From Muribaculaceae bacterium (GTDB taxonomy: Bacteria; Bacteroidota; Bacteroidia; Bacteroidales; Muribaculaceae): a DNA stretch of 64,000 bases. The stretch lies in assembly GCA_022510385.1 (NCBI GenBank), contig JAFLTQ010000014.1:1-64000 (forward strand), written 5' to 3'. Positions within the stretch are counted from its first letter, which is position 1. Every line of letters begins with the position of its first letter. A program made the position numbers and the translations under genes. Below are positions 13,449 to 55,085 of this stretch, piece after piece. The notes beneath the pieces were generated by a model. The model did no database searches and was not told the DNA's origin. It saw only the letters and a list, made by a program, of their open reading frames with translations.

Positions 13449-14132
13449 TTACCCAGCCACACTTCTGACATCCGCCATTGCGTACACTTCCTGTTTAATC
13501 ACCTTCATACGGTCAGCCATTGTGGCAATCGACACAAGATCAGCTGATACGCTGACCTTTCCCAAAGTGTTCAAGGCACGCAATAAGGGTGTCTTGTAAT
13601 CAAGGCTCTCGCTTGTGTAAGAAATAAAGATGGTGGGAATACAAAGTGTCTCTCCCAAAATAAATGGCGGGGAAGAAATGTCCCATGCGGAATAGCCTCT
13701 TGCTTCAAAAGTGTTTCTGATTCCACCGCTTGGGAAACTTGAGGCATCCGGTTCCTGCTGAACCAACATTTTGCTGGTGAATTTTTCGATCACTCCACCT
13801 TTGCCATCATGTTCTAAGAAAGAGTCGTGTTTTTCGGCTTTTCCGTCGGATAGATGTTGAAACCAGTGAGTGTAATGTCGGGCTCCGTTTTCAAGAACCC
13901 ATTGTTTCATGCCTTGCACCACATTATCGGCATATTCCCGTGGCAAAAATTTCCTATTGTCGATTATATCGACCAAAGCGTCGAAGTTCTGTTTGGGAAG
14001 ATACTCAAACATCTTCTGACGGTTGAACACTTGTTTGACATAATAGACTTCCGGTCGTTCTTCCGGAATCGCCACTGACACAGCTTTGCGTCCCATGGCT
14101 TGCTCCACTGCTTTGAATCTGAGTGTTGACAT
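13449..14132 (-). CDS. Type III glutamine synthetase-like N-terminal fragment (227 aa)
   Basis: GSIII-type N-terminus (GARHYTHWFQHLSDGKAEKHDSFLE, VQQEPDASSFPSGGIRNTFEARGYSAWDISSPPFI) but ends after ~220 aa; no in-frame continuation. Confidence 0.75.
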   Translation of the reverse strand: MSTLRFKAVEQAMGRKAVSVAIPEERPEVYYVKQVFNRQKMFEYLPKQNFDALVDIIDNRKFLPREYADNVVQGMKQWVLENGARHYTHWFQHLSDGKAEKHDSFLEHDGKGGVIEKFTSKMLVQQEPDASSFPSGGIRNTFEARGYSAWDISSPPFILGETLCIPTIFISYTSESLDYKTPLLRALNTLGKVSVSADLVSIATMADRMKVIKQEVYAMADVRSVAG

Positions 14133-14633: not shown

Positions 14634-14782
14634 AAAGAAAATCCGTTGAAGTGATTCAACGGATTTTCTTTAACATTTACCCAGATTATTTCCATCACAG
14701 AAATAACGATTCCCGAACGCTTCACAGCGTAATGTAAATGTTTGGTTGAATAATTTGTTATTTTATGAGAAATCTACTATTT
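14634..14782 (-). ncRNA. Candidate structured RNA with terminal terminator hairpin, copy 1
   Basis: Minus-strand P1 AACATTTAC/GTAAATGTT enclosing ACGCU-GUGA-AGCGU and UUAUUUC/GAAAUAA, then 17-bp AAAGAAAATCCGTTGAA hairpin and T-rich tail; second copy at 39751-39895. Confidence 0.5.
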
Positions 14783-14854
14783 TTTCTTGGATAGAATAAA
14801 TAGAATTGTTTTTCATGATATTAGATTTTATGACTAAAGCTCAGTTATACAACT

Positions 14855-15949
14855 TCAATTGATAATTTGCTTTTTACCATTCACAATATAAACTCCTTTC
14901 TCCAAGCCTGCAAGGCTTTTTCCCTTATCAAGCACCTTGACCCCGTTAATATCGTAAACATTATAAACATTAGTTGTGATATTTCTCTCAACCCCTTCTA
15001 TTCCATTTTCACCGCTTTCATCAAGATTAATGAGATTGTATGACTGAGTCCCAAGCCCGATTTCTTCCGCGTATTCAACTGTATGTGTACCATGCAAACT
15101 TTCTATCCTGTTGATAAGAGGTGTTGCATTGTCTCCAGTAACTGACTCATGACTGAAAACTAAGTCAAGACATGCACGGTCAAGTGCCACGGGATCTGTT
15201 GAAGCCAAGATACCCATATCTTTTAGTTCCGGAGCATGCGGATTGCCGTCACAGTCGCAGTCAACAGACATGTTGTTCATAACATTTATATAGACTATAT
15301 CCTTCCCCTCCTGTTTGAAATAATTGTGAACAGCCTGAGCTGCGGCTGCCATCGATTCAAGGAATGAATCTTGATAAGCACCTGAACCCGATGTTTTATT
15401 GCCGGCACTATGTATATAACTTTTCCCTCTTGATGAAGCTACTCCAATACTTGCATTTTTAAGAACACCTCCGAAACCTCCCATTGCATGACCTTTGAAG
15501 TGTGCAAGGTTTATCATGAAATCATAGTTGCTGATATGAGAACCGACGATGTCATTGTCAAGCCATTTAGTATCTGAAACGGGAATTGTAATTTCCCCTT
15601 CAGAATCCATGATGTCTACGTTGGCGATGGCATTGTACCCTCTTTCCTCTATTGCTCTCAAATGTGATGCTGTATTGTTTCGATTACCCCAATATGCAGT
15701 GTTGCATTCAACCAAAGTGCCGTCAACGGATTGTACCAGATCCTTGATCAATTCCGGACTTAAGTGGTTGCTTCTGCTTGATTCACCTGTAGATATTTTT
15801 ACAGCAACATTTCCTTTTGGCTCTACACCCAATGCTTTGAATATATTCACAAGAGATTCAGGGGTAATCTCTGACGTAAAATATACATCCGATTGGGCCG
15901 AGACTTTTAATGACAATATCAATAAACTCAGAAAAATCAGTTTTTTCAT
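14855..15949 (-). CDS. DUF362 domain protein with signal peptide and T9SS-like C-terminal tail
   Basis: Signal peptide MKKLIFLSLLILSLKVSAQ; NLAHFKGHAMGGFGGVLKNASIG; C-terminal YDINGVKVLDKGKSLAGLEKGVYIVNGKKQIIN. Confidence 0.8.
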   Translation of the reverse strand: MKKLIFLSLLILSLKVSAQSDVYFTSEITPESLVNIFKALGVEPKGNVAVKISTGESSRSNHLSPELIKDLVQSVDGTLVECNTAYWGNRNNTASHLRAIEERGYNAIANVDIMDSEGEITIPVSDTKWLDNDIVGSHISNYDFMINLAHFKGHAMGGFGGVLKNASIGVASSRGKSYIHSAGNKTSGSGAYQDSFLESMAAAAQAVHNYFKQEGKDIVYINVMNNMSVDCDCDGNPHAPELKDMGILASTDPVALDRACLDLVFSHESVTGDNATPLINRIESLHGTHTVEYAEEIGLGTQSYNLINLDESGENGIEGVERNITTNVYNVYDINGVKVLDKGKSLAGLEKGVYIVNGKKQIIN

Positions 15950-37296: not shown

Positions 37297-38688
37297 TTAA
37301 CCGGCTTTTTCTTCAATACCCGAGGAATTGATTGGAGGCAAGATAGCATGCAAACAAATGAAACCAATAATCCCGGCAGTCAAAGAACCTATGACAATAC
37401 CCAGTTTAGCCTGGTTGAGTAGGGAGGCCTGAGCCGGATTATTACCGAATGAGATAGTTGCAATAAATAAGGATACGGTAAATCCGATTCCACCGAGCAT
37501 CGCTACAGCTGCCAATTCTTTCCAAGAGGAATGAGAAGGCATGGGTGCCAACCTAAGCTTTACAGTAAGCCAAGAAAATGTAAATATGCCAACAAATTTT
37601 CCTATTACAAGACCTAATATTATGGCTATCCCTATTCCTTCAAATACTGATGCAGGATTCATATCCAATAGATAAATTCCGGCATTAGCAAAAGCAAAAA
37701 TCGGCACTATAAAAAAGTTTACAAAAGGATGTAGTGAATCTTCAAGCTCTTGTAAAGGAGAGATGACTTTATCTGATGCTGATTCTATTTCTTTCAGCCA
37801 GTTCATTTGTTCTTTATTTAAAATACTCCTTTTTGCCAACATCTCGTCGTCGACATCTCTGAAGTGACTAATGGCGGTTCTTATATTTTTTATATATTTT
37901 TGGGGAGCGAAAACCGGAGTGGCCGGGACACATAACGCCACAAGTACGCCGGCAATTGTCGGATGAATACCTGAATTGAGAAATAGAAACCATACCACTC
38001 CACCTATTAGAAGATAAAAGATCTTAGATTTGATTCTCAATGCAGAGCCTAACAATAATACACATAGCAAAATAGCGGCATATAATAGCAATAAAAATTC
38101 TATATGGTTAGAATAAAATACTGCAATAACGATGATGCCTCCTATGTCATCCACTACGGCGAGTGTCGTTAGAAAAATTTTCAGGGATATAGGCACCCTG
38201 TCGCCAAGCATTGCAAGTATTCCAAGTGAAAACGCTATGTCTGTGGCCATCGGTATTGCAGCGCCTACTGAATATTCTGTTCCAATACTTAGCCAAAGGA
38301 AAATAGCTACCGGCACAATCATACCTCCTAATGCTCCGATTATAGGCAACAATGCCTGTTTAAATGACGAAAGTTCTCCTACCAATATCTCGCGTTTTAT
38401 TTCGAGTCCTATGCTAAAAAAGAATATAGCCATTAATGCATCATTAATAAAACTTAAAAGAGACATGGGATGCCCATTGTGGCTAAATAAGTTAAAATCC
38501 CCGATTTGCAATCGAATTTCCTGATTCCAAAAATCAAAATACATATGATTGATATAAGGGATATTAGCAATTACAAAAGCCAACAAAGTAGCCATTATAA
38601 GAATATTTCCGCCTGTTGCATGGCGTCGAATTGCTTGACGGGCTGCATAAAATGCAGATTGATTAGAGGATAAAAATTCTGTATTCAT
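37297..38688 (-). CDS. nhaA: Na+/H+ antiporter NhaA
   Basis: 463 aa, NDALMAIFFFSIGLEIKREILVGEL, ATDIAFSLGILAML, AMLGGIGFTVSLFI. Confidence 0.95.
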   Translation of the reverse strand: MNTEFLSSNQSAFYAARQAIRRHATGGNILIMATLLAFVIANIPYINHMYFDFWNQEIRLQIGDFNLFSHNGHPMSLLSFINDALMAIFFFSIGLEIKREILVGELSSFKQALLPIIGALGGMIVPVAIFLWLSIGTEYSVGAAIPMATDIAFSLGILAMLGDRVPISLKIFLTTLAVVDDIGGIIVIAVFYSNHIEFLLLLYAAILLCVLLLGSALRIKSKIFYLLIGGVVWFLFLNSGIHPTIAGVLVALCVPATPVFAPQKYIKNIRTAISHFRDVDDEMLAKRSILNKEQMNWLKEIESASDKVISPLQELEDSLHPFVNFFIVPIFAFANAGIYLLDMNPASVFEGIGIAIILGLVIGKFVGIFTFSWLTVKLRLAPMPSHSSWKELAAVAMLGGIGFTVSLFIATISFGNNPAQASLLNQAKLGIVIGSLTAGIIGFICLHAILPPINSSGIEEKAG

Positions 38689-39240
38689 TATTATCTATTA
38701 CTGTTAACTGCATGCCTTCTGGTGTTCCGAATGTATATTGCCCAATTATAGTCTCTGGAGCGTATGCCACACTGAATTTCTCTCTTCCTTCCGGAGTGGG
38801 ATTTTCCCAGTATTTTTCCCTGTCAGCCCATTTCTTGCCGAGACCCTCTCTATATATGTTTCCATTCTGTGATACAATAGCCGTTATCCTTTCAGGATGC
38901 CACATAGCAAGTCTGAATCCTATCGGTGCTCCATAGTCAAAGACATACATTGCGTAATGTTTGAGCCCTATTTCTTCTGTGAATTTATCAATTATCTTGC
39001 TAATATGATCAAATGAATATTCAAAATCATTTCTATCCGGAGACTTGGTCTGTCCGAAACCGGGAAAATCCGGAGCCACTACATAAAAATCTTTGGCCAA
39101 TAACGGTATTAATTCTCTGTACATGTGACTGCTGCTTTGGAAACCATGTAAAAGTAAAATCACCGGTTTTCCGGATTACCTGCTGTCCTGTAAAATATTT
39201 CTGTATTGTCAATTTGGATAGTATGATAGCTTGTTTCCAT
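38663..39240 (-). pseudogene. Alpha/beta hydrolase remnant, frameshifted and 3'-truncated
   Basis: METSYHTIQIDNTEIFYRTAGNPEN | frameshift | ILLLHGFQSSSHMYRELIPLLAKDFYVVAPDFPGFGQT...GTPEG then unrelated tail overlapping nhaA. Confidence 0.75.
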
Positions 39241-39750: not shown

Positions 39751-39895
39751 TTAAAAAATCCGTTTAATCGTTTCAACGGATTTCTACAAACATTCTTTCA
39801 GAAGGATTATTCCCTCGCGGAAAAACCAAATCTGATCCACTTCACAGTGGATAAAATGTTTGATTGAATCAATTAAATTTCTAAGTAGAAATCTG
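39751..39895 (-). ncRNA. Candidate structured RNA with terminal terminator hairpin, copy 2
   Basis: Minus-strand P1 CAAACATT/AATGTTTG, P2 AUCCACU-GUGA-AGUGGAU, P3 UUUCC-GCGA-GGGAA, then AAATCCGTT...AACGGATTTTTT terminator. Confidence 0.5.
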
Positions 39896-39904
39896 CTATA
39901 TCTC

Positions 39905-40771
39905 TCAGACTTTCATGCTTTTCAATATATGATATAAGCCCAAAAGCTGTTCTATGTCTGTGAAATCAGCAGCTATCCCGTGACCGGTGTCAAGTTTGGA
40001 TATTTTTTCCATCTCCTCATTCGATAATGTGAAATCAAGAATTTCAAGATTCTCTTTCATTCTTTCAATCCTTACCGATTTCGGAATAACTATAATTCCT
40101 GACTGGACAAGGAAACGAAGTGCAACCTGAGCCGCTGTCTTTCCGTATTTGGTTCCGATACCTTCAAGAACAGGATTGGTGAAAATGCCGTTTTCTCCAT
40201 GAACCAACGGACCCCATGCCATCAGATGGGTGCCATATGCAGAACAAATTTCCTGCATTCTTTTCTGCTGTGAGAAAACATTGACCTCAAGTTGATTCAC
40301 AGCAGGTTTTATTTCCATATTATCCGCAAGATCCTCAAAACGGTCATAATAGAAATTGCTCACACCGATAGCACGTATCTTACCGTCCTTCAAGGCTCTT
40401 TCCATGGCTCTGTAAGTGCCATAATAATCCCCGAATGGCTGGTGAATGAGAAGTAGGTCTATATAATCGGTTTGTAATTTCTTTAAAGAGTTATCAATTG
40501 AATCTGCTGCTTTTTTATCACCAGAATTAGTAATCCAAACTTTTGTGGTTAGAAACAGATCCTCTCTTTTCAGTCCGCTTTTCTTCCAGGCCTTACCGAC
40601 CCCTTCTTCATTAAGATATGCTTGGGCTGTATCAATGGATCGGTAGCCAACGGCCAAGGCATCGCTTACACATTTTTCACATTCTTCCGGAGTAACTAAA
40701 TAAACTCCGTAGCCAATCAATGGCATTTCGACTCCATTGTTCAACTTAATCTTTTCCATAAAACTCTTCAC
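39905..40771 (-). CDS. Aldo/keto reductase
   Basis: 288 aa, YRSIDTAQAYLNEEGVGKAW, IRAIGVSNFYYDRFEDL, VIPKSVRIERMKENLEILDF. Confidence 0.93.
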   Translation of the reverse strand: MKSFMEKIKLNNGVEMPLIGYGVYLVTPEECEKCVSDALAVGYRSIDTAQAYLNEEGVGKAWKKSGLKREDLFLTTKVWITNSGDKKAADSIDNSLKKLQTDYIDLLLIHQPFGDYYGTYRAMERALKDGKIRAIGVSNFYYDRFEDLADNMEIKPAVNQLEVNVFSQQKRMQEICSAYGTHLMAWGPLVHGENGIFTNPVLEGIGTKYGKTAAQVALRFLVQSGIIVIPKSVRIERMKENLEILDFTLSNEEMEKISKLDTGHGIAADFTDIEQLLGLYHILKSMKV

Positions 40772-40903: not shown

Positions 40904-41293
40904 TCATTCTCTTTTCAAATCAATCAATACTATCTGAGGATAAGCTCCAAATCGGAAGGCTACGTTCTCTCCAATTCCTGTGCTTACATATAATCGTTGA
41001 GGCCCTTCTGAATAAAGTCCACCCCATTCAGGATAAGAATATTTTGAAGGTGACCAATTACCGAGCTTAAATTGCATAGCATGGGTGTGACCCGCAAGCA
41101 TCAAATCAATATCAGATTTTGGGAGCACTTCCCGTCTCCAGTGGGAAGGGTCATGAGACAACAGTATTTTAAATTCATTCTCGGGAATACCCGACAAAGC
41201 TTTCTTCAAATCAGCCCTGTCAGTAAAAGACTCACCTCCGGCATTCTCAACACCTATTATAGCAATACTGTCATTGCCTCTTTTTATTTTCTA
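40904..41293 (-). pseudogene. 5'-truncated metallophosphoesterase
   Basis: KIKRGNDSIAIIGVENAGGESFTDRADLKKALSGIPENEFKILLSHDPSHW...LAGHTHAMQFK; N-terminal half absent, stop at the 5' edge. Confidence 0.7.
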
Positions 41294-54529: not shown

Positions 54530-55085
54530 TATAGGATCAGGATTGTTTATTGTTCTTAATTTATTTATGTGTTTTTAATTTCTTTGAATAATAATATATG
54601 ATATCAGTCCATTTGTAATTTTTAGAGCGAAATATTTTGCCAATAATATAATTCAAAATTATTAAAAATAAGATAATACAGCAATACCCTGATACATATA
54701 AAAAAAAATTGGGTGTCGTCGCGACAACCAATCTTTAATTAACCTTAAAATCTAATACCATGAAAAACTCAATGCAAAAGTACAAAAATATTTTTAAAAC
54801 TATGCTATATAACATATAAAAATGCGCCATCTTAATATTATTTAACTTTTATAATTCATATGTCGCAGTGATTTATGTTTATTTAACATTCCTTTGGTTT
54901 GTTCTTTTTTTGTAATTTTGCATTTATACTCTATGAATTTTTCCTTTTGAATAGAGGGTAAGAAATGTGATTATCAGTTAACAGAAAATGGGAGAAACTT
55001 TCCCGAAGTTTTCATATAAAAATCGGGGATTGGGTATTTCTTTTAATGATAATCATTTATAATTTAGCTTTCAAGAAAAAAATAT

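What the first reader, a model, noticed from the sequence alone, without database searches (positions are those of the whole stretch)
14634..14782. Two-copy structured RNA family, copy 1: three-way junction with GUGA hairpin and long terminator
On the minus strand copy 1 shows P1 AACAUUUAC/GUAAAUGUU enclosing P2 ACGCU-GUGA-AGCGU and P3 UUAUUUC/GAAAUAA, followed by a 17-bp perfect hairpin (AAAGAAAATCCGTTGAA) and a T-rich tail. Copy 2 (39751-39895) keeps the same layout with different stem sequences: P2 becomes AUCCACU-GUGA-AGUGGAU, a compensatory pattern with an identical GNRA loop. Both follow minus-strand genes (DUF362 and aldo/keto reductase) and lie about 500 nt before the next minus-strand gene start.
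Basis: partly seen in the sequence, partly recalled or inferred. Interest (0 to 1): 0.75.

Follow-up and report, generated by a model that had tools for sequence, protein, structure and literature searches.

The report
Structured RNA ending stress-type gene operons
A roughly 145-base structured RNA with its own transcription terminator ends certain oxidoreductase-type gene clusters in a few related uncultured gut Bacteroidales; it is a real, undescribed RNA family, probably a small RNA or mRNA tail, but of a familiar kind and with no known function.

Summary
Both copies are there, fold as drawn, and belong to one RNA family that no Rfam 15 model matches. The conserved unit is about 145 nt (14634-14778 and 39751-39897, minus strand): a 5' block AGTAGATTTCTCATAAAA, a single-stranded stretch TTATTCAACC, a P1/P2/P3 three-way junction, and an intrinsic terminator. 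A model built from only these two copies finds a third copy in the same genome and eight more in five same-genus genomes. No full copy turned up in the rest of about 400 family and 394 order genomes, or in phages or plasmids. The unit is 71-73% identical between copies, against 54% for shuffled sequence, and similarity stops at both edges. Covariation is real but modest. All copies end operons from one redox/stress-type neighbourhood (AraC, aldo/keto reductases, DUF362). Two persist where the adjoining DUF362 gene is gone or displaced. Neither window copy leads the next gene, which has its own promoter-like site after the terminator, and no sigma-ABfr promoter precedes the unit. The likeliest reading is an operon-terminal 3'UTR RNA, probably accumulating as a small RNA. 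That last step is inference; no expression data were available.

The parts
14634..14778 (-). Copy 1, whole conserved unit (5' block, junction, terminator)
   Evidence: Edges set by conservation: 73% identity inside against flanks near shuffled background; R2 match 149.7 bits
14761..14778 (-). 5' block AGTAGATTTCTCATAAAA
   Evidence: Alignment A6; pattern search finds it only at family members plus one junction-less relative, 0 control matches
14744..14753 (-). Conserved unpaired stretch TTATTCAACC, candidate pairing region
   Evidence: Alignment A6; unpaired in most folds
14734..14742 (-). P1 5' strand AACATTTAC (3' strand 14672-14680)
14717..14730 (-). P2 hairpin ACGCU-GUGA-AGCGU
14686..14706 (-). 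P3 hairpin UUAUUUC/GAAAUAA
14672..14680 (-). P1 3' strand GTAAATGTT
14634..14671 (-). 17-bp intrinsic terminator hairpin and T-rich tail
   Evidence: C-G to U-A double change in 4 of 11 family members
14855..15949 (-). DUF362 gene whose 3'UTR holds copy 1
   Evidence: PF04015, E 1.1e-46
39751..39897 (-). Copy 2, whole conserved unit
   Evidence: R2 match 146.9 bits
39853..39862 (-). Copy 2 P1 5' strand (3' strand 39787-39796)
39835..39852 (-). Copy 2 P2 hairpin AUCCACU-GUGA-AGUGGAU
39799..39834 (-). Copy 2 P3 (CAGA/UCUG plus distal stem, GCGAG loop)
39751..39785 (-). Copy 2 terminator hairpin and T-rich tail
39905..40771 (-). Aldo/keto reductase gene; its stop codon lies 7 nt before copy 2
   Evidence: PF00248, E 2.8e-51

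Best explanation
The unit is the conserved 3' end of a family of related operons (AraC-linked aldo/keto reductase, DUF362 and M6-peptidase/DUF1893 genes). The operon transcript runs into it, folds the three-way junction, and ends at the built-in intrinsic terminator. The folded 3' end is then most likely kept as a stable RNA of about 125-150 nt, cut from the mRNA near the 5' block, with the conserved unpaired TTATTCAACC stretch as the likely pairing site for other mRNAs. Shown by sequence: the unit, its edges, its homologs, its position, the terminator, and modest covariation. Inferred: transcription from the operon promoter, processing, accumulation, and action on other RNAs.
For: The discrete unit is conserved at 71-73% against about 54% shuffled, with flanks near background, in both the DUF362 and the AKR setting. 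The terminator is kept in all copies, the junction in nearly all. No sigma-ABfr -7 site (TAnnTTTG) lies near the 5' edge of any of the 9 copies scanned; the only one upstream is 212 nt away. The unit follows a gene end on the same strand in all copies. The downstream genes in the window have their own TAnnTTTG sites 337 and 430 nt past the terminator, and in G047 the next gene is convergent. The RNA persists where DUF362 has been reduced to a 3' remnant (G046:C51, L156) or displaced by a peptidase gene (G047:C56). UTR-derived sRNAs are documented in Bacteroides (21 candidates, PMC7366714).
Against: No expression data. No conserved target found: off-family matches to the unpaired stretch are near the control count. 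Core folding energy alone is unremarkable in many members (z between 0 and -0.6 in 4 of 11). Very narrow distribution (6 of 111 genomes of the genus). Junction-less relatives keep only the 5' block and terminator, so the junction can be dispensed with at some operon ends.
Confidence: 0.5

Rival explanations
1. Only a terminator with a stabilising mRNA tail: the junction protects the operon mRNA from 3' exonucleases and nothing acts in trans.
For: Always at operon 3' ends directly joined to a terminator; related operon ends keep 5' block and terminator without the junction (L171, L167); no target found.
Against: The 5' block and the unpaired TTATTCAACC are conserved in sequence (72% against 51%), which a mere clamp does not need; P3 loop G-N-G-A also kept.
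Confidence: 0.3
2. Free-standing small RNA gene with its own non-canonical promoter, parked behind operons and duplicated with them.
For: RNA intact where the upstream gene is deleted or displaced; the 5' block contains TAGATTTC, one letter from the TAnnTTTG consensus; a second promoter type (PM2) exists in Bacteroides (PMC7366714).
Against: No TAnnTTTG at the unit and no conserved TTTG at -33 by eye (and alignment); AKR-type copies have CAGATTTC, further from the consensus; copy 2 starts 7 nt after a stop codon.
Confidence: 0.13
3. A mobile or recombining DNA element (palindrome-type repeat or cassette end) rather than an RNA.
For: Several copies per genome next to different genes; a duplicated DUF362 tail beside the G047 copy.
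Against: No terminal inverted repeats seen; positions explained by duplication and decay of one operon neighbourhood; compensatory changes; absent from phage and plasmid records.
Confidence: 0.05
4. Leader or riboswitch that controls the downstream gene through its terminator.
For: Junction followed by a terminator is the usual layout of such leaders; the 5' ATTCAAC can in principle pair with the terminator arm GTTGAAT.
Against: Downstream genes differ between contexts and have own promoter-like sites in the window, one is convergent; the 7-bp alternative cannot plausibly compete with the 14-17-bp terminator, and its bases are not kept in G039a.
Confidence: 0.02

Closest known systems
UTR-derived and intergenic small RNAs of Bacteroides (e.g. 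GibS, 145 nt; PMC7366714)
   Same: Similar length, 5' single-stranded part, intrinsic terminator at the 3' end, gut Bacteroidales host
   Different: No Rfam match reaching threshold; GibS has its own promoter (PM2), ours has no recognised promoter and sits at operon ends
FopS family of paralogous sRNAs (RF04319; PMC11697453)
   Same: Paralogous RNA family with several copies per genome, single-stranded 5' stretch and terminator; one FopS member lies in this window at 54699-54770
   Different: FopS is about 71 nt, has no junction and has canonical sigma-ABfr promoters; the FopS model matches neither copy
Operon-end structured 3'UTRs with intrinsic terminators
   Same: Position and terminator
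   Different: Here a conserved 5' block, an unpaired stretch and a three-way junction are shared between unlinked operons

Membership tests
Any Rfam 15 family | Score at or above a family's gathering cut-off | tested here: not met
   No match at either copy or in 8 homologous loci
FopS (RF04319) | Match to RF04319 and canonical sigma-ABfr promoter | tested here: not met
   No FopS match on the element's strand; no TAnnTTTG at the unit
One homologous RNA family (the present claim) | Further homologs found by a model of the two copies, beyond the terminator | tested here: met
   Nine more full copies; core alone conserved
One homologous RNA family (the present claim) | Covariation supporting the junction | tested here: inconclusive
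   Core: 3 pairs with both sides changed, 11 of 500 shuffles reach this; 94.5% cells paired against 39-55% slid. R-scape was not available and 11 related sequences give little power
3'UTR-derived small RNA | Located between stop codon and shared terminator of an mRNA | tested here: met
   All full copies follow a same-strand gene end or its remnant and end in a terminator-like hairpin; one copy (G039b) is cut at the contig end
3'UTR-derived small RNA | Discrete accumulating RNA with processed 5' end | not testable with these tools
   Needs RNA-seq, Term-seq or Northern blot
Riboswitch/leader | In the 5' leader of the gene it controls | tested here: not met
   Own promoter-like sites downstream in the window; convergent neighbour in G047

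The most novel reading that the evidence does not exclude
A new trans-acting small RNA released from the 3' ends of several redox/electrophile-type operons at once, so that any of them, when switched on, sends the same post-transcriptional signal through the TTATTCAACC region.
Probability: 0.2. Interest if true: 0.55.

Novelty: new member of a known kind. Interest (0 to 1): 0.33.

Why it matters
It adds an undescribed structured RNA family to a group of gut bacteria whose RNA biology is known mainly from one species. Shared 3' ends on separate stress-type operons would be a simple way to couple them to one small RNA, which is directly testable. Its narrow range limits its general weight.

Tried and rejected
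Rfam at gathering and relaxed thresholds: only chance matches such as plastid 3'UTR hairpins to the terminator. Short conserved peptide from the ATGAAAAACAC motif upstream of DUF362-type copies: reading frames differ between copies, so rejected (sequences). Anti-terminator pairing of ATTCAAC with the terminator: too weak and not conserved. Targets of the unpaired stretch: matches near control level and mostly inside genes. Weak model matches in G053, G105, G025 and G378 are terminator-only or chance. Pattern scan of viral contigs failed twice for machine reasons. R2 family search scored only the top candidates per genome, so R1 was used to confirm the range.

Full report
What is there. On the minus strand, 14634-14778 and 39751-39897 carry two copies of one unit of about 145 nt: a 5' block (AGTAGATTTCTCATAAAA in copy 1, AGCAGATTTCTACTTAGAAA in copy 2), a stretch (TTATTCAACC / TGATTCAATC) that stays unpaired in most folds, a three-way junction P1/P2/P3, and an intrinsic terminator. 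Both copies fold better than all of 200 dinucleotide shuffles (z -5.2, -4.3); for copy 1 most of this is the terminator (core z -1.8). The junction cores of the two copies align far above shuffled sequence.

A family. A covariance model from the two copies alone finds a third copy in the same genome (G000:C42, behind the 3' end of a second AKR locus) and copies in five further genomes of the genus, down to E 1e-23. In all there are 11 full copies: G000 three, G046 three, G039 two, G042, G043 and G047 one each. About 400 family genomes and 394 order genomes hold no other full copy, nor do phage or plasmid records. No Rfam family matches.

Edges and selection. Between DUF362-type copies the unit is 73% identical and between DUF362- and AKR-type copies 71%, against 54% for shuffled sequence; the 60 nt before it are 63% and 54% (shuffled 58% and 55%), and the sequence after it is at background. 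By part: 5' block 72%, junction 67%, terminator 79%, all against about 51%.

Structure. Across 11 sequences 96.5% of cells pair, against 34-55% when the partner is slid, and five pairs have changes on both sides (shuffled mean 2.0); for the junction alone 94.5% and three pairs (shuffled mean 0.7, reached in 11 of 500). The minimum-energy fold of 8 of 11 cores shows the three-way junction. This supports the structure but, with few and related sequences, does not prove it. The P2 loop is GUGA in 7 of 11 members only; the P3 loop G-N-G-A is kept in 10 of 11.

Setting. Eight copies follow a DUF362 gene, or its remnant, whose product ends ..LEKGVYIVNGKKQIVN; three follow an aldo/keto reductase. These belong to one kind of neighbourhood: an AraC regulator near the DUF362 gene in several loci, tandem DUF362 genes, aldo/keto reductases, short-chain dehydrogenase, M6 peptidase and DUF1893. 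In G046:C51 the DUF362 gene is deleted down to its last codons and AraC is cut, yet the RNA is intact; in G047:C56 a peptidase gene lies between DUF362 and the RNA, with a decayed copy of the DUF362 tail beside the RNA. AKR orthologs without the unit exist. DUF362 relatives below about 75-80% identity lack it, with one exception at 76% in G046:C65. Two operon ends (L171, L167) keep only the 5' block and the terminator, and one locus in G042 keeps only P1 and a terminator-like hairpin next to the same flavin-reductase gene that neighbours a full copy in G046.

Mechanism. Every copy follows a same-strand gene end and ends in a terminator (one is cut at a contig end). In the window the next genes have their own TAnnTTTG sites 337 and 430 nt beyond the terminator, and in one genome the neighbour is convergent, so it is not a leader. 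No sigma-ABfr promoter is seen at the unit. The most economical reading is an operon-terminal 3'UTR RNA that folds, terminates, and is probably retained as a small RNA; UTR-derived small RNAs are documented in Bacteroides (PMC7366714). A simple stabilising tail is the main rival. Processing, accumulation and targets are inference.

Comparison. It resembles GibS and FopS in length class or layout but is not a member of FopS or of any Rfam family tested. It is best called a new, narrowly distributed family of a known kind.

Noticed in passing
window 54699-54770 (-): A FopS small RNA (RF04319, 76 bits) with a TAnnTTTG promoter-like site just upstream, in a genome outside the genus Bacteroides.
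   Followed up: no
window 13449-14132 (-): Only the N-terminal 227 aa of a type III glutamine synthetase (PF12437), directly followed by an ammonium transporter; looks truncated or frameshifted.
   Followed up: no
window 38663-39240 (-): Alpha/beta hydrolase gene appears frameshifted near its start and short; pseudogene or assembly error.
   Followed up: no
window 40904-41209 (-): C-terminal remnant of a metallophosphoesterase that is longer upstream of the AKR gene in G042 (L004).
   Followed up: partly
L156 2665-2727; L207 around 2170-2223: Relatives of the unit that keep only the 5' block and terminator, without the three-way junction, behind a DUF1893 gene.
   Followed up: partly
between DUF362 stop and unit, e.g. 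window 14779-14854 (-): A second conserved motif, roughly TCTGATACCATGAAAAACAC, in DUF362-type copies only; not a conserved peptide; meaning unknown.
   Followed up: partly
L163 / L047 (G047:C56): Duplicated, decayed DUF362 3' tail next to the RNA, with an M6 peptidase gene between it and the intact DUF362 gene.
   Followed up: partly
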